A DNA stretch of 52,931 nucleotides, taken from positions 1 through 52,931 of the IMG/VR virus record IMGVR_UViG_3300025849_000049, one strand, 5' to 3'. Below the pieces are notes generated by a model. The model saw nothing but the letters and a program-made list of their open reading frames with translations, did not search any database and was not told the origin of the DNA. The stretch comes from a virus. Below are positions 30,793-43,024 of the stretch, one piece after another. A program made the translations under genes and the position numbers. How positions within the stretch are numbered: the first letter of the stretch is position 1; each line of letters opens with the position of its first letter.

Positions 30793-31440
30793 ATGTGGAA
30801 GGCATCACAAAAAAGTTTAGTATTTTTTACGTTGGTCATTTGGCCGACTTTTTTGTTTGCGCAAAATACACAAGAGGGTGACTTTAATACAAGCACTGTA
30901 AACTCAGACAGTACTGTTAGCAGTAACAACCCCAGCACCACAAATAATTATAACGGAGCGGGAGCAGCTTCAGATGTAACACCGCCCCCATCGGCCATTG
31001 CTCCAACGTATATGTCTAACGGACAAGACACTTGTTTGGCTGGCCGTAGTGCAGCAGTACAAGTAAACGTATTAGGTTTAGCTTTAGGTGGGTATAAGCA
31101 AGATATTGAATGCAATAGAAGACGTGATGCTAAGATATTAAAAGACCTTGGTATGAACATCGCAGCGGTGGCTTTAATGTGTCAAAAGAAAACCATTTGG
31201 ATTTCTATGTTTGATTCAGGTACACCCTGTCCTCTTACTGTTAACGGCAAGCTTATTGTAGGCAGGTCAGCTTTCATGACAATGAAAAGAAACCCTGCTA
31301 AATTTATACCTGATTACGAAAAAAGAAAGAAGCATTACGATAGTGTTCTTAACATTGGAGGGGAAGAAACAGATGAGGAAAATACTGATAGCACTTTGTC
31401 TATTAGCGAGCGTTTCAGGACCAGCATTAGCAGAGACTGA
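30793..31440 (+). CDS. Exported protein of unknown function
   Basis: A 215-residue protein with a signal peptide (SLVFFTLVIWPTFLFAQ, cleavage probably after FA). The linker is Asn/Ser/Thr-rich with a PPPSAIAP segment. The mature part has DTCLAGRSAAVQVN, ALGGYKQDIECNRRRDAK, and NIAAVALMCQKKT...GTPCP, four cysteines likely in two disulfides. I know related proteins near lysis genes of marine phages; the role is unknown. Its end overlaps the next gene by 68 bases in another frame. Confidence 0.7.
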   Translation: MWKASQKSLVFFTLVIWPTFLFAQNTQEGDFNTSTVNSDSTVSSNNPSTTNNYNGAGAASDVTPPPSAIAPTYMSNGQDTCLAGRSAAVQVNVLGLALGGYKQDIECNRRRDAKILKDLGMNIAAVALMCQKKTIWISMFDSGTPCPLTVNGKLIVGRSAFMTMKRNPAKFIPDYEKRKKHYDSVLNIGGEETDEENTDSTLSISERFRTSISRD

Positions 31441-32152
31441 GATTGATAGGCTTGTAGCGGCTAGTCGTTCTATTGCTAACAAGCTTCAACAAGGTAGATA
31501 TGCAGTAGGAGGCTTAGCTTATTACGCCGTAAGGGGTAAGATAGCGCCCGATGGAACTACACTTCCTACTTTTATTACACCTGCAGATGTTGATGCGTAC
31601 AATAACTCTGTTAATGAAGTGTCTAATCGTATTTATTACAACACTCAAATGATGCTAGAAAATCAATACGAAGAAACAATGATTCAATTAGAAACAACAG
31701 TAGATACATTTGTCGAGGCTGCTGCTACGCTGGCTGTTGTTACAGAGGTAGCAGAAAAAGCGGAGGATACAGACCAATCAAACACAGTGCAACAAGAAGA
31801 GCTACAGGATTACATTGTAGCTAATGACGTTTCCCTTAATCAACAGGATGTAAATGAATATAACAATGCACTGTCTGATATTGAAACTTATTCACAAAAT
31901 GCGGCTGCTTTTCTAGCTGCCTCTAAGGATTTAACAATTACAGATTCAGTAGACAGTGGCGCACAAAGCTATAACTTAAACATGTCTAATGCCACTGCCA
32001 CATATAACAAGGCAAACCAAAGTCTTTCATTTTCTTGGACATCGTCAAATTATACTCACGGATTTTATGGGTTTTTTGCTAATGATATGATAAGCCAACA
32101 AGAAATTTTAGGAATGGGTCAAACAATATACGAAGACCAGGAGTACAACTAA
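31373..32152 (+). CDS. Exported protein, overlaps upstream gene
   Basis: I chose ATG 31373 (GGAGGGG about nine bases upstream) over an upstream start; this gives 259 residues. A signal peptide LIALCLLASVSGPALA ends in an AxA cleavage site; there is no lipobox cysteine, so it is not an o-spanin. The middle is helical and acidic; the C-terminus holds TATYNKANQSLSFSW. Its first 68 bases overlap the 3' end of the previous gene in a different frame. It probably acts in the periplasm during lysis. Confidence 0.7.
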   Translation: MRKILIALCLLASVSGPALAETEIDRLVAASRSIANKLQQGRYAVGGLAYYAVRGKIAPDGTTLPTFITPADVDAYNNSVNEVSNRIYYNTQMMLENQYEETMIQLETTVDTFVEAAATLAVVTEVAEKAEDTDQSNTVQQEELQDYIVANDVSLNQQDVNEYNNALSDIETYSQNAAAFLAASKDLTITDSVDSGAQSYNLNMSNATATYNKANQSLSFSWTSSNYTHGFYGFFANDMISQQEILGMGQTIYEDQEYN

Positions 32153-32547
32153 TGTCATTAGAAGATACAGAGCTTAAAATTGGTGGTGTAAATCTAAAGG
32201 GAGTTTGGATTGCAATAGTAGTGTCTATTGCTACTACTATGGCTGGTGGCATCTGGGCTGTGGCTGAGTTCTATGGTCGTATCGAAGCTGTTGAAGAAGC
32301 AGTGTCTGGCAACGGTAAGGCTGCAGAAAAGCTAACAGTGTTGGGGGCAAACCTAGAAACAATTATGGAAAACCAAAAGCAATTACTTGACATGCGTGAC
32401 AGGGTTTCTGAAGTGGAAAAGACTATGGCTGAGTCAGTATTAAAAGTTAACCAAGCCGCTGAAAAGGCGGGACAAGTTAGTAAGGTTCAACGTGAAATAG
32501 ACGACCTGTGGCGTGGTATGGACGCCTTAGCTAATCCTCTTAACTAA
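32152..32547 (+). CDS. Membrane-anchored coiled-coil protein (spanin-like)
   Basis: 131 residues: a short cytoplasmic start, one membrane helix (VWIAIVVSIATTMAGGIWAV, about residues 18-37), then a long periplasmic coiled coil with charged heptads. The layout matches inner-membrane spanin subunits, but no lipoprotein partner was found. It overlaps the previous gene by one base and the opposing gmd gene by eight bases at 32540-32547. Confidence 0.65.
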   Translation: MSLEDTELKIGGVNLKGVWIAIVVSIATTMAGGIWAVAEFYGRIEAVEEAVSGNGKAAEKLTVLGANLETIMENQKQLLDMRDRVSEVEKTMAESVLKVNQAAEKAGQVSKVQREIDDLWRGMDALANPLN

Positions 32548-33565
32548 GAGCTTCCTGCATCATCTCGTCAATCATTGTATCAAAGGTGTACTTAGGTTCC
32601 CATCCTAACACTTCACGTGCCTTGGTAGCATCGCCCAGTAGTAGCTCAACCTCTGCAGGCCGATAGAACTCTGGGTTAATCTTAACCACAGTGTTACCGT
32701 TCTCATCTACACCAATCTCGTCTGGGCCAGGTTCACCCTCCCAGCGTATACGCATGTCTACTGCACGGAAACACTTCTCTACAAGCTCTCTCACGGAGTG
32801 TAGCGCACCTGTAGCTAGTACATAGTCATCGCCCTGCGCCTGCTGGGTCATTAAATACATGCCATACACGTAATCTTTTGCATGTCCCCAGTCACGCTCT
32901 GCATCTAGGTTGCCTAGCTTAATGTGAGGCTGGTTACCCTTGGCAATATTAGCCACACCCTGTACAATCTTCTGCGTAACAAACTCTTTGCCCCGCCACG
33001 GAGACTCGTGGTTAAACAAGATGCCATTGGAAGCGTGTAATCCATAGCTCTCACGGTAGTTCTTAACCATCCAGTAAGCAAACTGCTTGGCTACCCCATA
33101 AGGAGAGCGTGGATAGAAGGGTGTGGTCTCTGATTGTGGTGTTTCTACGACCTTCCCATATAGCTCTGAGGTGGACGCTTGGTAGAATCTGGTATGACTT
33201 TCCATTCCTAGTGTACGAATGCACTCCAGCAGCCTTAATACCCCCATACCGTCTACATCAGACGTGTATTCTGGCATGTCAAAGGAGACACGCACGTGGG
33301 ACTGAGCAGCTAGGTTGTATACCTCGTCAAATATATTTGTATCAAACAGCCGCATGATGCTGCCTGTGTCTGACAGGTCTCCGTAATGTAGGTGTAGGTT
33401 CTTGTTATCCACCAGATGTGCAATGCGTTGTGATGGTTCAGAAGAAGACCGCCGCTGTAGTGCATGTACTTCATACCCTTTGTTAAGTAGTAGCTCTGCT
33501 AGGTAGCCACCATCTTGTCCTGTAATGCCTGTAATGAAGGCAGACTTCTGTCCAAACTTGCTCAT
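32540..33565 (-). CDS. gmd: GDP-mannose 4,6-dehydratase
   Basis: A 341-residue short-chain dehydrogenase that makes GDP-4-keto-6-deoxymannose, the precursor of GDP-fucose, rhamnose or perosamine. The NADP site TGITGQDGG is at residues 12-20 and the catalytic STSE and Y156-x3-K160 (in SPYGVAK) are intact. The conserved NHESP box here reads NHESPWRGKEFVTQKIV instead of the commoner NHESPRRGETFVTRKIT. It ends the glycan operon, is coupled to the membrane peptide upstream by an ATGA overlap, and overlaps the opposing + strand gene by eight bases. Confidence 0.93.
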   Translation of the reverse strand: MSKFGQKSAFITGITGQDGGYLAELLLNKGYEVHALQRRSSSEPSQRIAHLVDNKNLHLHYGDLSDTGSIMRLFDTNIFDEVYNLAAQSHVRVSFDMPEYTSDVDGMGVLRLLECIRTLGMESHTRFYQASTSELYGKVVETPQSETTPFYPRSPYGVAKQFAYWMVKNYRESYGLHASNGILFNHESPWRGKEFVTQKIVQGVANIAKGNQPHIKLGNLDAERDWGHAKDYVYGMYLMTQQAQGDDYVLATGALHSVRELVEKCFRAVDMRIRWEGEPGPDEIGVDENGNTVVKINPEFYRPAEVELLLGDATKAREVLGWEPKYTFDTMIDEMMQEALS

Positions 33566-33642
33566 TTTCTTTCCTCTATTACGCCCAGTAAAATTGCAAC
33601 AACAATAATCAAGACTCCAATTGCGTAGTTAGTCAGTGACAT
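33562..33642 (-). CDS. 26-residue membrane peptide between terS and gmd
   Basis: MSLTNYA is followed by a hydrophobic helix (IGVLIIVVAILLGVI) and EERK. The start overlaps the end of terS by 14 bases in another frame, with GAGGAA eight bases upstream. The stop overlaps the gmd start (ATGA). This perfect fit of a single-span peptide between two coupled genes suggests it is translated. The function is unknown; it might anchor or modulate the glycan enzymes or the membrane. Confidence 0.6.
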   Translation of the reverse strand: MSLTNYAIGVLIIVVAILLGVIEERK

Positions 33643-34111
33643 CTGTTTCTTCCTCTTCTTTTTCTTCGTACTCTTCTTCAGGCTCTTCTTGGTCTTCGTC
33701 GAAGTCTTCTGGAAAAGTAGCCATAAGAAGTTGATATACTTTTTCCTTACCGATGACTGTCATTGCTGAACAAATACGTGCCTCAAGACCTTCAAGGTCT
33801 TCTGGGTTATTCTCATCTGCGTTGTTACCACGAACACGTGACAATAGCTCCAGTGCTTTCAGAGCGGTAGCTCCGTTGCCATTAACTTTTGCAGCTTCGT
33901 ATTGTTTTTCTAGCTCTGAGATAACATCTACGTCTGTATTGTATTCCGTCTCCAGCTCTTCGAGTCTTTCTTGGATGTCTGCTCTTTTTAAAAGCTCATA
34001 GCCTTGGTTGTATGCAGACTTTTCACTATACCCTGCCTCTTTAGCAGCAGCAGTTGCATTTCTTCCTATGACATAAGAGGCGCAGAATTTCTCGTGCTTC
34101 TCCTTAAGCAT
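33629..34111 (-). CDS. terS: Terminase small subunit
   Basis: 160 residues from ATG 34111 (GGAG eight bases upstream). The N-terminal LKEKHEKFCASYV...NATAAAKEAGYSEKSAYNQGYELLKRADIQERLEEL is the Terminase_2/TerS helix-turn-helix that recognises the packaging site. The middle is helical for oligomerisation, and the last 25 residues are almost all Glu/Asp. It is on the opposite strand to terL, 32 kb away, inside the glycan operon. It overlaps the fused transferase gene by eight bases. The usual terS-terL pair is thus split. Confidence 0.8.
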   Translation of the reverse strand: MLKEKHEKFCASYVIGRNATAAAKEAGYSEKSAYNQGYELLKRADIQERLEELETEYNTDVDVISELEKQYEAAKVNGNGATALKALELLSRVRGNNADENNPEDLEGLEARICSAMTVIGKEKVYQLLMATFPEDFDEDQEEPEEEYEEKEEEETDVTD

Positions 34112-36395
34112 TCGTGTACTCCTCAAAGGTTACTACGTTGTTATTGTAGTATCCGCCCTTCCACACAGCCGCTGCCAGTGTATCTTCTCCGTAGAATGAC
34201 AGGCTTAGTGTATAGTCTCTTCTCTCAAAGAGCTTCTCTAGGTCTTGGGCCAGTGCAAGAAGCTCGCCTGTAGTCCAGAACTTTTCTCCGCCAATCTCTA
34301 CATTCATATAGCGTGGGTTACCCATCTCGTCCTTGTCGTCTTTCTTTACATCGCCCTCTGGAACAGAACAATCAAAACCAAAGAGGTGAATGTTCCTATA
34401 TCCCAATAGCTCAAGCAGCCCTAGCGTGCGTGTGGCTGATGCTGTGCCACCACTTACCAAAGAAGAACCAGGTTTAATACCCAACTTAGGGTCCACAACA
34501 AACTTGTCTTCAATGCTTTCATCTCTTAGCGCATCTGTAAAGGCGTGAAAGCCCTTGACATTGTTCGTACGCTCTAGGATGTAATCAACTACGCCCTCAT
34601 CTGTCATGCTGGCAATATAAAAGGTTGTGTCCTTGTTCATATCCTTAAACAAGTCCTTACGCTTTACACCATGTGTGCTGATGCCGTCGATAGAACGTGG
34701 GTCAAGAATCATACAAGCATCAGGTGTAATCCCTTCTTCCAACAAGCGTGGATAGGAGTGCTTGACACACCAGATTTTTGCATTGTATTTCTTTTGTGTT
34801 TTCCTAACCTTATCAAAGTCAATCGTGCCGCCAGAGACAATCATAACGTGGTCATCTGTTGTCTTGTATTGCTTAACCCAATCCCAGTCATCTATCTTGG
34901 CAATGTTTTCGGTCACACTTTTCTTAATGTGTTCGCTTGGCATTGAGTCTTTAGGCTTAACAATAATAGGAACACGCAACAACTCTGGGGGTATTTTCTT
35001 GTAGCCTTCTTTAATACAAACAGCAAGGTGAACAATACCACCAAAAGCAGTACCGTCTTCAGAAGGCAAGATGTGTTTTGTTTTACTGTCAATAGCAGAA
35101 AAAGTTTTAATAATACCTGTGTGTTCTTCTGGTAATTTTTTGTCTTTTTGTGTTGAATAATAGTCGTCGAAGACAACAATAGGACAGTCCTTAACAAAGC
35201 TGTAATCACTAGCCACCGTATCTAAAGAGTGGCCGCCATCAATAAAAACAAAGTCCACATCGTCATAGCGCAGACCCTTCATTGTTTCTTTTGTATCTCC
35301 TGCATACAGTTTAAAGGTAAACGTCTTTCCCGCTGCGGCTGAACGCTCTTTAAATTGTTCTAGCCTTTCTGTTACAGCTGTCAACGCATTGTGTCCCTTT
35401 ACATTCAACTCAACTGCATCAGTCTCTTCAGTAGCCTGTTCAAACAAATCAAACCCACGATAGTGTACTGTGTCTACGCTTTCAAAGGCAGTCAACGCCA
35501 TCTCGATTGCACGACCACCATTCCATGTGCCAGTTTCCACAATGGTAAAGGTGTCAATGTCTTCTGAATAATGACGAACCAATGCTGCTAGTTTCTTATA
35601 TCGCTGAGGCCCTTGCTTGGAGTTTGCTGGCGTGTCCTTTGATAGCTCAGGATTAGCTGAGGCTTCAAACTTACGCTTGCCTTTGTTATGTGTAAAGTAA
35701 TCGTCAAGCATACACTGGTCAAACACAGAGAACCCACGCACACCCTCTGATAGGTTGCGTGCTTTCATTCCATGAGCCTCATAAATCTTAAGCAGGCGGG
35801 TGAATACAAAAGCATCTGTCCACTCACGATACGCAAACACTTCGTCTGTGTCATACGCACCACGCAGGTCAACCAGCAATGAGCAGGCATTGTGCATACT
35901 TAGATTAAAGCCAATGAAGCCTGTCTCGCTATAGTCAATATCAATACGACCAAGGTGTACAATGTCAACCTCTGGAATTAGAAGCTTAGCTGCATCTTCT
36001 GCCTTAAACATTTTCTTTGTAAGCGTATCGGCATCAAGCCATACCATCCAGTCTTTGCTGTCTGCATCAAGAAGCTCAAAGAACAGGTCACTCATTGCAT
36101 ACACCTTGTGACAGAAGCGAACAGCATCCATACGATAGTTATAAGGTGCTTCACCGAAGCGTCCGTTCTTATCGCTATTGCGTGTAATAAAATCAGTACG
36201 TGCCTGAATGTTCTCTAGGTGACGGTACTCAATAAAGTCTGCTTGTGGTAGGCCATCTGATTTACCATCATAGCCTTCAAGATAAACATGTAGCTTGAAG
36301 TCCGTTGGCTTCCATTTATTGGCAACAGAGTCAAGCATCTTAAGGCCATAGACCCCTTCGTGTTGTTTGTGAAAGCTCGTTACAAAATTATACAT
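34104..36395 (-). CDS. Three-domain glycan enzyme: glycosyltransferase - methyltransferase - MAF/DUF115
   Basis: A 763-residue fusion. Residues 1-250 are a GT-A type glycosyltransferase with the metal-binding DAD at 121-123 (VWLDADT). Residues 265-470 are a class I SAM methyltransferase of the Methyltransf_24 kind, with VETGTWNGG (285-293), FIDGGHS (383-389) and FDDYYS (408-413). Residues 500-763 match the MAF/DUF115 domain of motility-associated sialic-acid-type transferases, with SGGTASATRTLGLLELLGY (647-665) and LFGFDCS. It probably builds and caps a surface glycan. Coupled to the GT8 gene by TAATG. Confidence 0.85.
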   Translation of the reverse strand: MYNFVTSFHKQHEGVYGLKMLDSVANKWKPTDFKLHVYLEGYDGKSDGLPQADFIEYRHLENIQARTDFITRNSDKNGRFGEAPYNYRMDAVRFCHKVYAMSDLFFELLDADSKDWMVWLDADTLTKKMFKAEDAAKLLIPEVDIVHLGRIDIDYSETGFIGFNLSMHNACSLLVDLRGAYDTDEVFAYREWTDAFVFTRLLKIYEAHGMKARNLSEGVRGFSVFDQCMLDDYFTHNKGKRKFEASANPELSKDTPANSKQGPQRYKKLAALVRHYSEDIDTFTIVETGTWNGGRAIEMALTAFESVDTVHYRGFDLFEQATEETDAVELNVKGHNALTAVTERLEQFKERSAAAGKTFTFKLYAGDTKETMKGLRYDDVDFVFIDGGHSLDTVASDYSFVKDCPIVVFDDYYSTQKDKKLPEEHTGIIKTFSAIDSKTKHILPSEDGTAFGGIVHLAVCIKEGYKKIPPELLRVPIIVKPKDSMPSEHIKKSVTENIAKIDDWDWVKQYKTTDDHVMIVSGGTIDFDKVRKTQKKYNAKIWCVKHSYPRLLEEGITPDACMILDPRSIDGISTHGVKRKDLFKDMNKDTTFYIASMTDEGVVDYILERTNNVKGFHAFTDALRDESIEDKFVVDPKLGIKPGSSLVSGGTASATRTLGLLELLGYRNIHLFGFDCSVPEGDVKKDDKDEMGNPRYMNVEIGGEKFWTTGELLALAQDLEKLFERRDYTLSLSFYGEDTLAAAVWKGGYYNNNVVTFEEYTNA

Positions 36396-37162
36396 TACAT
36401 GTTCTCCAGAATAAGTTGTGTTGTTATTTCTTGTTCAGCCTCTAGCCACTCCTCAACATAGACTTCTTCAACGGGGCGGCTAGGCTTCCACTTGTTAAAC
36501 CAAGGACCGCCTGTAGTAAAGTGTACGTTCTTAGCTTCAAGCTGCGGGTCGCTCTGCCCATCAAGCCAGTTCCATTCGGGGTGGATAGGCCCAATCTCGT
36601 CGTCGTCTAGCCAGCCAAACGAATGGAGCCACCCACCAGCTCTAAGGTTTACATCGTCTACTGTAAGCTTTAGATTTGATGGGTGACTGCAATCGAATAA
36701 CATAAAGCTAGACCAGTTCTTTCTGTAGTAGCTTGTCTGTGCTACGCCGTCCATCTTTACCTTGCTGTTTGGTTCATAAGGCTTGTGCTGTACGCACTGT
36801 ACTGCATACTGTGTGTTCTTCCCGTACACCTTAAAGATGCCTGCAATGTCTGCACGTACAAACATGTCGGCATCCATAAACAAGGCTAGACCATCGTACT
36901 GATTTAATGCAGGTACGAGGAAGCGGGTGAAGGTGAAGTCTGTGCTGAAGGGTCTACCATCGAAGGCGTCATAGCGTTGATGCGGTTCGTGCGGGTAGAC
37001 AACAGAAGCCCTGCGATACATACCATTGCGGCGTAGTGCAGGTTCCATCAAGGGAATGATGTCGTACTCTTTGTTATATTTTTTAATTGAATGTGCCAGA
37101 ACCTCTACGGCTCGATGGTCACGTCCATCATATCCAATGTAAATTACTGGTCGTTTGTTCAT
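36395..37162 (-). CDS. GT8-like glycosyltransferase
   Basis: 255 residues from ATG 37162, chosen for the GGAGA five bases upstream. The N-terminus PVIYIGYDGRDHRAVEVLAHSIKK is a nucleotide-sugar transferase start; FMDADMF (residues 96-102) is the DxD metal site; HFTTGGPWF near 223-231 matches the GT8 end motif. It is the first gene of the operon driven by the perfect promoter at 37237-37265 and preceded by a structured leader. Confidence 0.85.
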   Translation of the reverse strand: MNKRPVIYIGYDGRDHRAVEVLAHSIKKYNKEYDIIPLMEPALRRNGMYRRASVVYPHEPHQRYDAFDGRPFSTDFTFTRFLVPALNQYDGLALFMDADMFVRADIAGIFKVYGKNTQYAVQCVQHKPYEPNSKVKMDGVAQTSYYRKNWSSFMLFDCSHPSNLKLTVDDVNLRAGGWLHSFGWLDDDEIGPIHPEWNWLDGQSDPQLEAKNVHFTTGGPWFNKWKPSRPVEEVYVEEWLEAEQEITTQLILENM

Positions 37163-37182
37163 TGTGTCTCCATATAAGTAAT

Positions 37183-37230
37183 GGTGGTGAGCCAAGGGAT
37201 TGAGAGAGAAAGGAGGTTCAGCCCACCACC
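37183..37230 (-). promoter_or_regulatory. Structured leader RNA displaying an anti-Shine-Dalgarno sequence
   Basis: From the predicted transcript start (37230) the RNA begins GGUGGUGGGCU, which can pair over 11 positions (two G-U) with GGCUCACCACC (37193-37183). The 26-base loop contains ACCUCCUUUCU (37217-37207), identical to the 3' tail of bacterial 16S rRNA. The preceding GGCUG also matches 16S, with A in place of the GAUC between the two blocks. The gene's own GGAGA ribosome site lies downstream and could pair with the loop CUCC. See findings. Confidence 0.55.
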
Positions 37231-37236
37231 ATGTAT

Positions 37237-37265
37237 ATTATAATAAATTACACAACAAATGTCAA
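37237..37265 (-). promoter_or_regulatory. Perfect consensus promoter for the glycan/terS operon
   Basis: On the minus strand, TTGACA (37265-37260), 17 bases, TATAAT (37242-37237). The predicted start is 37230, the first base of the leader stem. It serves GT8, the fusion transferase, terS, the membrane peptide and gmd. Confidence 0.85.
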
Positions 37266-37268
37266 GGA

Positions 37269-37460
37269 TTATTTATGCCACATACCCTTGAGTCTTTTCT
37301 TGGCTGCAAGGTTGGCTTGCTTCTTGTCTTCGTGGGACATGACCGACCAGTTCTCAATGTCACGTCCTGTTCTGCCGCAGTGTATGCAAGTGTCGTGTGT
37401 GTTAGACAACTCGCAGCTTTCTACTTTGGCTTCTGCGCTGGCCTTACAGGGGCTACTCAT
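37269..37460 (-). CDS. DUF1289-like small cysteine protein
   Basis: A 63-residue protein with DTCIHCGRTGRDIENWSVMS (residues 23-42) and NLAAKKRL, matching the DUF1289 pattern of C-x2-C, GR-x3-EI-x2-W-x-x-M. Four cysteines (C5, C16, C25, C28) may hold a metal. It overlaps the glutaredoxin stop by four bases (ATGA) and ends the nucleotide-metabolism operon just upstream of the glycan operon promoter. The function is unknown; it may be an accessory to redox or DNA metabolism. Confidence 0.7.
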   Translation of the reverse strand: MSSPCKASAEAKVESCELSNTHDTCIHCGRTGRDIENWSVMSHEDKKQANLAAKKRLKGMWHK

Positions 37461-37678
37461 AATATATAATGCTCCAACTGTGTGTAACCACCTATGTGCT
37501 TACCGTTAACTTTAATCTGCGGTACTGTTTTCTCGTCAGGGAACAGCTCTTTAAATTCTTTAGCCGTAACCTCTGTGCCGATGCCGTAGTAACCGTAGGG
37601 AATCTTTCGAACCCTACAGAATACTACGGCGTCTCTACAATACTTGCAGCCTTTCTGCCCGTATATCTCTACCCTCAT
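37457..37678 (-). CDS. grx: Glutaredoxin
   Basis: A 73-residue glutaredoxin with the CKYC active site (residues 11-14), the TVPQI cis-proline motif (51-55) and GGYTQLE for glutathione-site binding (63-69). It overlaps RNR by four bases (ATGA), so it most likely re-reduces the C-terminal cysteine pair of the neighbouring class II reductase. The gene contains an unusually strong hairpin (37584-37629). Confidence 0.9.
   Translation of the reverse strand: MRVEIYGQKGCKYCRDAVVFCRVRKIPYGYYGIGTEVTAKEFKELFPDEKTVPQIKVNGKHIGGYTQLEHYIL
37584..37629. promoter_or_regulatory. Strong hairpin inside the glutaredoxin gene
   Basis: GCCGTAGTA and TACTACGGC pair perfectly, extended by two further pairs. An inner GTAGGG/CCCTAC stem encloses an 11-base loop, with a small internal loop between the stems. 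It lies fully within coding sequence, so it is either a protein-sequence coincidence or an mRNA processing or stability element. No T-run follows. Confidence 0.5.
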
Positions 37679-42300: not shown

Positions 42301-42933
42301 TTAGCTTTGTTTTTTAATAACTCTACCTTTACGGTAGCCAGTTGGAATTGTATCATAGCGCATAATTCTTAAGCTGTCAACCCCATTTGTTATCCACATA
42401 GTGCCGTACATTGAGTTGCCGCTTCCTGCTTGGTGCTTAGAGTTGGCTTTTCCTATCAGCTTCTTAGAACACTCCTTGTGTTTTCTTCCCTTCCATATTC
42501 CGTCAGGAAATTTGTTTTTAATAGCTTCTTTTCCTTTCAGGGAAATCTTTACAAAGTGTTCTTTTGGAAAACTCTTTCCAACTTTACTGGCTGCTTTTGC
42601 TTGGCTGAGCTTAGATTTTTCAGGCCAGTCTTCGTATCTTGCCCTTAGACTGTTCTCGTTAATATAATCCCAACCGCCCAGTCCACCTTCATGTAAGTTG
42701 TATGGTGGGTTTAATTCTGCTATTAATTCTTTTTCCTTCTCAAACATTTCTTGGGGTGAGGGGAAGACAAAAAGAATATCTTTAATAAAGTTGTCTTCCC
42801 CATACTTTGTAACAGCACGTTTTATAACTGTACCAGACCCCATATAGTTATCCTGTGGGTTCTTTGTTTTGTGACAACCAATATAAAATTTACCGTTTTG
42901 TTTATTGGTTATTTTGTAGACAGTGTATAACAT
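42301..42933 (-). CDS. GIY-YIG homing endonuclease
   Basis: A 210-residue protein. The N-terminal TVYKITNKQNGKFYIGCHK is the GIY-YIG nuclease core. The C-terminus has GSGNSMYGTMWITNG followed by IPTGYRKGRV, the NUMOD-type DNA-binding tail common in phage homing enzymes. It starts 17 bases downstream of the tRNA-Arg gene and lies as a free-standing gene in the replication module, so it is probably a selfish element that spreads by cutting relatives lacking it. Confidence 0.9.
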   Translation of the reverse strand: MLYTVYKITNKQNGKFYIGCHKTKNPQDNYMGSGTVIKRAVTKYGEDNFIKDILFVFPSPQEMFEKEKELIAELNPPYNLHEGGLGGWDYINENSLRARYEDWPEKSKLSQAKAASKVGKSFPKEHFVKISLKGKEAIKNKFPDGIWKGRKHKECSKKLIGKANSKHQAGSGNSMYGTMWITNGVDSLRIMRYDTIPTGYRKGRVIKKQS

Positions 42934-42950
42934 GTTGTTACCCCCTGATG

Positions 42951-43024
42951 CGAACGCAGCAGGATTTGAACCTGCGACCTACAGCTTAGAAGGCTGTTGC
43001 TCTATCCAGCTGAGCTATGCGTCC
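42951..43024 (-). tRNA. tRNA-Arg (anticodon UCU)
   Basis: A 74-base tRNA reading on the minus strand. The acceptor arms GGACGCA and TGCGTTC pair with one G-U. D, anticodon (ACAGC/GCTGT) and T (GCAGG/CCTGC) stems are complete, with TTCAAAT in the T loop. The anticodon TCT (42990-42988) reads AGA and AGG. No CCA is encoded (CAT follows the discriminator G). Its first base is also the last base of the TAG stop of the upstream gene. Confidence 0.95.

What the first reader, a model, noticed from the sequence alone, without database searches (positions are those of the whole stretch)
37183..37265. Glycan/terS operon leader shows the 16S rRNA anti-Shine-Dalgarno tail in an 11-bp stem-loop
A perfect promoter (TTGACA-17-TATAAT, 37265-37237) predicts a start at 37230. 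The RNA then begins GGUGGUGGGCU and pairs over 11 positions with GGCUCACCACC (37193-37183). The 26-base pyrimidine-rich loop carries ACCUCCUUUCU, the exact 16S 3' tail, and the stem/loop edge carries GGCUG, which also precedes that tail in 16S (with GAUC between). The loop could pair with the gene's own GGAGA site, soak up mRNAs with strong ribosome sites, or sense free ribosomes. I know of no described phage leader of this kind.
Basis: partly seen in the sequence, partly recalled or inferred. Interest (0 to 1): 0.7.

Follow-up and report, generated by a model that had tools for sequence, protein, structure and literature searches.

The report
Conserved phage mRNA leader hairpin
A group of uncultured marine phages start one of their messages with a conserved RNA hairpin whose exposed loop copies the ribosome's own mRNA-binding tail; the hairpin is clearly kept by selection, but what the loop binds is not yet known.

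Summary
At 37265-37183 (-) a perfect sigma-70-type promoter is followed at the predicted start by a 13-bp hairpin. Its 22-nt pyrimidine loop holds ACCUCCUUUCU, identical to the alphaproteobacterial 16S 3' tail.

It is not chance. Relatives carry it at the same operon promoter, one copy per genome, in five stem classes (A-E). Nine of 14 stem pairs show two-sided compensatory changes (0/500 shuffles reach this), while third codon positions of the adjacent gene are near saturation. The CCUCCUU core is kept in four classes and a CUCUC tract in all five. The first gene downstream varies, so the leader is a module of its own.

The GGCUG "16S extension" is not conserved. Loops do not fit their own SD better than another class's SD, and in class C the 3-nt linker cannot reach the loop. 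No phage mRNA is a better antisense target than with shuffled loops.

Best reading: a cis-acting 5' leader whose stem caps the transcript and whose loop is a single-stranded ribosome- or protein-binding site. It resembles aSD-loop hairpins of alphaproteobacterial trans-sRNAs (ar14/"cuckoo", AbcR) but is part of a phage mRNA. Host and 5' end are untested.

The parts
37237..37265 (-). sigma-70-type promoter TTGACA-17-TATAAT
   Evidence: 12/12 consensus; -35 (TTGACA or TTGACT) and TATAAT kept in relatives while the spacer diverges
37230..37230 (-). predicted transcription start (+1 G), inferred from promoter spacing
   Evidence: sequence; not mapped experimentally
37218..37230 (-). 5' arm of the leader hairpin (GGUGGUGGGCUGA)
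   Evidence: RNAfold; covariation across five classes
37196..37217 (-). 22-nt pyrimidine-rich loop
   Evidence: unpaired in the fold; compared across classes
37207..37217 (-). ACCUCCUUUCU, identical to the alphaproteobacterial 16S 3' tail; CCUCCUU core kept in classes A, C, D, E
37202..37208 (-). CUCUCUC tract, kept as at least CUCUC in all five classes
37183..37195 (-). 3' arm of the leader hairpin (UUGGCUCACCACC)
37167..37171 (-). Shine-Dalgarno site GGAGA of the first gene, 11 nt after the hairpin
   Evidence: sequence; an SD follows the hairpin in all classes at 3-13 nt
36395..37162 (-). first gene of the operon: glycosyltransferase (weak Glyco_transf_8 match)
34104..36395 (-). second gene: large fusion with Methyltransf_24 and MptE-like domains
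33629..34111 (-). third gene: terminase small subunit
   Evidence: Terminase_2
32540..33565 (-). fourth gene: GDP-mannose 4,6-dehydratase

Best explanation
It is a conserved, structured 5' leader RNA at the start of the glycosyltransferase-methyltransferase-terS-gmd transcript of a lineage of uncultured marine phages. Shown by sequence: a strong promoter puts a 13-14 bp hairpin at or within a few bases of the predicted 5' end; the stem is kept by compensatory changes; the loop keeps a single-stranded CCUCCUU...CUCUC pyrimidine tract. Inferred: the stem caps the 5' end against 5'-end-dependent decay, and the loop is a cis-acting binding site on the nascent message for a ribosome component (S1 is the leading guess) or another RNA-binding protein, raising or tuning expression of the operon. 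The match to the 16S tail follows from the loop being an anti-SD-type pyrimidine motif; pairing with an SD remains possible but is not shown.
For: Fold and z-scores for every class. Covariation: 90.5% of cells paired, 9 of 14 pairs changed on both sides, 0/500 shuffles reach this, and slid controls give at most 52% paired. The RNA strand folds better than the opposite strand in 7 of 8 class representatives, because the stems use G-U pairs. Near-saturated four-fold sites in the adjacent gene between classes (0.28-0.51 identity) against 7/7 conservation of CCUCCUU in four classes. One copy per genome, always at this operon promoter. The first gene downstream changes (glycosyltransferase, ~56-aa AALGELPAK-like protein, MTKIE protein) while promoter and hairpin stay, so the element serves the transcript rather than one coding sequence. 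Hairpin at or near the predicted 5' end in all five classes; two outgroup lineages carry unrelated hairpins at the same position, as a 5'-cap role predicts.
Against: No transcript data; the 5' end and the operon are inferred. No protein partner is identified; S1 is a guess from general knowledge of pyrimidine-tract binding. A plain 5' stabiliser does not need a conserved loop. An outgroup (L041-L051) runs the same operon with no clear hairpin. A model trained on classes A and B does not find C, D and E, so their homology rests on position, architecture and loop motif.
Confidence: 0.5

Rival explanations
1. Trans-acting anti-SD RNA, cuckoo-like: the hairpin, on the mRNA or cut from it, base-pairs through CCUCCUU with SD sites of other mRNAs (host or early phage) and blocks their translation.
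For: Same architecture as ar14/SmelA075/SmelA099 hairpins: aSD loop conserved, stems variable; NfeR1 silences ntrB through its aSD loops (PMC10746234, PMC3927594). The loop binds SDs with about the energy of the 16S tail. T4 RegB shows that a phage can attack SD motifs (PMC3014915).
Against: No excess complementarity to phage translation starts over shuffled loops. No terminator or separate transcript is evident. Class B has lost CCUCC. A single aSD site faces thousands of ribosomes. Host mRNAs could not be tested because the host is unknown.
Confidence: 0.2
2. Plain 5' stabiliser of the ompA/papA type: only the stem matters and the loop drifts as an unstructured, cleavage-poor spacer.
For: Hairpin at or near +1 in all classes; different +1 hairpins in outgroups at the same promoter; 5'-terminal stem-loops are known to stabilise mRNA (works of Emory, Bouvet, Bricker and Belasco, cited in PMC3997798).
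Against: CCUCCUU and CUCUC are kept while synonymous sites are near saturation; a drifting loop should not keep them.
Confidence: 0.15
3. Cis pseudoknot switch: the loop pairs with the operon's own SD and represses it until released.
For: Class C loop and SD are complementary over 7 bp; all SDs pair to some extent.
Against: Own-SD energies are no better than cross-class ones. In class C only 3 nt separate a 14-bp stem from the SD, too short to reach the loop. In classes A and B the pairing is only about -6 kcal/mol. The SD sequence changes with the first gene without a matching loop change (L011, L083).
Confidence: 0.1
4. The opposite strand is the functional one (an SD AAAGGAGG for an antisense ORF at 37231-37509), or the palindrome is a DNA site.
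For: On the + strand an SD-like AAAGGAGG precedes ATG 37231.
Against: The ATG is lost in close relatives such as L002 (ACGTGG instead of CATGG), the SD is absent in class B, and the opposite strand folds worse because of G-U pairs.
Confidence: 0.03

Closest known systems
ar14 / 'cuckoo' sRNA family of Alphaproteobacteria (NfeR1, SmelA075, SmelA099)
   Same: Hairpins whose unpaired loop holds a conserved anti-SD motif while the stems vary; strong sigma-70 promoter
   Different: Those are separate trans-sRNAs with usually two to four hairpins and loop CCUCCUCCC; here one hairpin with CCUCCUU(U)C plus CUCUC is the 5' end of a phage mRNA; no Rfam match
AbcR1/AbcR2 (SuhB-like) sRNAs
   Same: CU-rich anti-SD motifs in unpaired loops (PMC7143759)
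   Different: Independent Hfq-binding sRNAs of 114-120 nt; no sequence or covariance match here
ompA/papA-type 5'-terminal stabilising stem-loops
   Same: Stem-loop at the 5' end of the message
   Different: No conserved loop motif is needed for that role; here the loop is conserved
T4 RegB attack on GGAG SD sites
   Same: A phage strategy directed at SD motifs (possible functional parallel only)
   Different: RegB is a protein endonuclease; nothing like it is shown here

Membership tests
ar14/cuckoo anti-SD sRNA | anti-SD motif CCUCCUCCC in the hairpin loop | tested here: not met
   loop is CCUCCUUUC (classes A, D, E), CCUCCUUCUC (C) or AGUCCUUUC (B)
ar14/cuckoo anti-SD sRNA | several hairpins, each with the motif | tested here: not met
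   a single hairpin in the leader; one strong CM match per genome
ar14/cuckoo anti-SD sRNA | match to a described RNA family model | tested here: not met
   no relevant Rfam hit, even permissively on 131 nt
ar14/cuckoo anti-SD sRNA | loop conserved, stems variable | tested here: met
ar14/cuckoo anti-SD sRNA | silences target mRNAs in trans at the SD | tested here: inconclusive
   no excess complementarity to phage starts over shuffled loops; host mRNAs not testable
5'-terminal mRNA-stabilising stem-loop | stem-loop at or within a few nt of the 5' end | tested here: met
   predicted from promoter and fold in all five classes; 5' end not mapped
5'-terminal mRNA-stabilising stem-loop | prolongs mRNA half-life | not testable with these tools
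   needs RNA decay measurements
SD-sequestering pseudoknot leader | loop complementary to and co-varying with its own SD | tested here: not met
   own-SD pairing not better than cross-class pairing; 3-nt linker in class C

The most novel reading that the evidence does not exclude
A phage carries an anti-Shine-Dalgarno hairpin on the 5' end of one of its own mRNAs that competes with the 16S tail for SD sites of other messages or reads free-ribosome supply, an mRNA-borne counterpart of the host's cuckoo-type anti-SD sRNAs.
Probability: 0.2. Interest if true: 0.78.

Novelty: new variant of a known kind. Interest (0 to 1): 0.56.

Why it matters
It adds a structure-conserved RNA element, strongly supported by covariation, to phage leaders, where few are described outside model phages. 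If the loop acts as an anti-SD, a phage would be using on its own mRNA a device known from host trans-sRNAs, a new way to tune or divert translation during infection. The predictions (5' end, loop versus stem mutants, S1 binding) can be tested with synthetic reporters without culturing the phage.

Tried and rejected
Rfam scans, region and leader only: nothing relevant. DNA similarity in isolated phages: none for the operon region, only short promoter-like pieces for the leader. Cultured distant relatives (Roseobacter CRP-901/902, Pelagibacter HTVC023P/027P, DSL-LC04): no convincing leader; the one weak match (E 0.04, HTVC023P) was not examined closely. Genome-contig scan with promoter plus loop pattern: 100 hits, none resembling the leader. 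Model trained on classes A and B only fails to find C, D, E, so the R1 matches of C-E are by construction. Own-SD pseudoknot: no co-adaptation. Trans targets among 37 ortholog groups: best mean energy -15.2 against -15.1 for shuffled loops. GGCUG as part of a 16S mimic: not conserved. Opposite-strand ORF: not conserved. The search for the 16S tail in whole-genome handles found nothing, for reasons not established; rrn-bearing plasmids were used instead.

Full report
What is there. The window is an uncultured virus record with structural genes on the + strand and nucleotide-metabolism and replication genes on the - strand. After the ribonucleotide reductase, glutaredoxin and DUF1289 genes on the - strand comes a promoter TTGACA-17-TATAAT (37265-37237), a 12/12 match and one of three exact matches in the window where 0.04 are expected. 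The predicted +1 is G at 37230. From there the RNA folds into a 13-bp hairpin with a 22-nt loop ACCUCCUUUCUCUCUCAAUCCC; -20.2 kcal/mol, z -2.8. An 11-nt linker, the SD GGAGA and the AUG of a glycosyltransferase gene (37162-36395) follow, then a methyltransferase/MptE-like fusion, terS and GDP-mannose dehydratase.

The 16S likeness. ACCTCCTTTCT occurs once in the record. A 31-nt query ending in GGCTGGATCACCTCCTTTCT matches exactly on rrn-bearing plasmids of many Alphaproteobacteria, so the loop does equal that tail. The host is not known; the nearest isolates, at about 40% portal identity, infect Pelagibacter and Roseobacter, with one listed as gammaproteobacterial. The same tail occurs outside Alphaproteobacteria (for example Bacillus, from my own knowledge), so it does not identify the host.

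Conservation. Relatives of the glycosyltransferase carry the promoter and hairpin at the head of the same operon in five stem classes: A GGUGGUGGGC, B GCGGUGGGC, C UGACGGUGGGG, D UGGUAGUAGGC, E UGGUAGCUGGC, found in about 90 loci, some from the same contig. With the stem register set by hand from the hairpin geometry, 90.5% of cells pair, 9 of 14 pairs have two-sided changes, 0/500 shuffles reach this, and sliding the partner by 1-3 positions drops pairing to 28-52%. Stems use G-U pairs, so the RNA strand folds better than the opposite strand in 7 of 8 representatives. Between classes the adjacent gene is 63-87% identical in protein and its four-fold third positions are 28-51% identical, while CCUCCUU is identical in A, C, D and E (one A member reads CCUCCCU) and CUCUC is present in all five. 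In a midpoint-rooted tree of the glycosyltransferase the leader-bearing phages fall on one side. There is one strong leader match per genome.

A module, not a gene's own UTR. In L011 (class A) and L083, L109, L110 (class B) a ~56-aa protein gene lies between leader and glycosyltransferase; classes C, D and E have small genes there too. The promoter and hairpin stay while the SD context and first gene change.

How it may work. Three tests were made of the idea that the loop acts as an anti-SD. First, each loop was paired with each class's SD: own pairs are not better than cross pairs, and the class A loop behaves much like the 16S tail. Second, geometry: class C has the best complementarity but only 3 nt between stem and SD, too short to span a 14-bp stem. 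Third, translation starts of three near-complete genomes (A, B, E; 37 ortholog groups): the best conserved target is no better than with shuffled loops. Neither cis sequestration nor trans targeting of phage mRNAs is therefore supported, though host mRNAs could not be tested. What remains is a 5'-terminal hairpin with a conserved pyrimidine loop. My preferred reading is a 5' cap plus a loop that binds a ribosome component such as S1, or another RNA-binding protein, in cis. The binding partner is inference.

Comparison with known RNAs. Alphaproteobacterial sRNAs of the ar14/cuckoo group have hairpins with variable stems and an anti-SD loop CCUCCUCCC (PMC3927594; PMC10746234), and AbcR sRNAs have CU-rich anti-SD loops (PMC7143759). 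NfeR1 silences ntrB through such loops. The phage leader shares that design but fails their defining features: the motif differs, there is one hairpin, it is part of an mRNA, and no Rfam model matches. 5'-terminal stem-loops that stabilise mRNA are well known (works cited in PMC3997798). A search for a described phage leader of this kind found none in the papers held; that library lacks most subscription papers.

Verdict. The interpretation as an anti-SD device is open. I rate it a new variant of a known kind (anti-SD-loop hairpin, here on a phage mRNA), interest 0.56.

Noticed in passing
L053, L055, L056, L073, L081, L058, L065 upstream of the same glycosyltransferase operon: Promoter followed at once by a terminator-like hairpin with a T run (e.g. 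GGGGATAGTTGCTAATAATAGGACTATCCCCTTTTTATTTG), which looks like an attenuator at +1.
   Followed up: no
L060, L064, L066 and L061-L063 upstream of the glycosyltransferase gene: A different +1 hairpin (GGAAATAATAATAATAAGAGTATTTCC) with an AAGAG in its loop, very close to the start codon.
   Followed up: no
L122, L127, L203, L204, L211 (unrelated viral contigs from the broad scan): TATAAT directly followed by a GC-rich hairpin and T run and then, within a short distance, an ATG, e.g. GGAGGGGGAAACCCCTCCTTTTTTTATG.
   Followed up: no
promoter spacers of classes C and E (L032, L038): Spacer palindromes overlapping the -10 (TATAGTATATTTACTATA; TACTAAATTTAATTTAGTA) that could be a repressor operator.
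   Followed up: no
window 33629-34111 and 719-2260: terS lies in a sugar/glycan operon on the - strand, about 31 kb from terL on the + strand.
   Followed up: no
window 42301-43024: tRNA-Arg (TCT) at 42950-43024 beside an ORF at 42301-42933 that looks like a GIY-YIG homing endonuclease by eye.
   Followed up: no
window 31343-32152 (+) and its ortholog in L358: SD regions (GGAGGGGAAG; GGGGGAGAGGAG) are among the best complements of the class A and B loops, but the ortholog group does not stand out against shuffled loops.
   Followed up: partly
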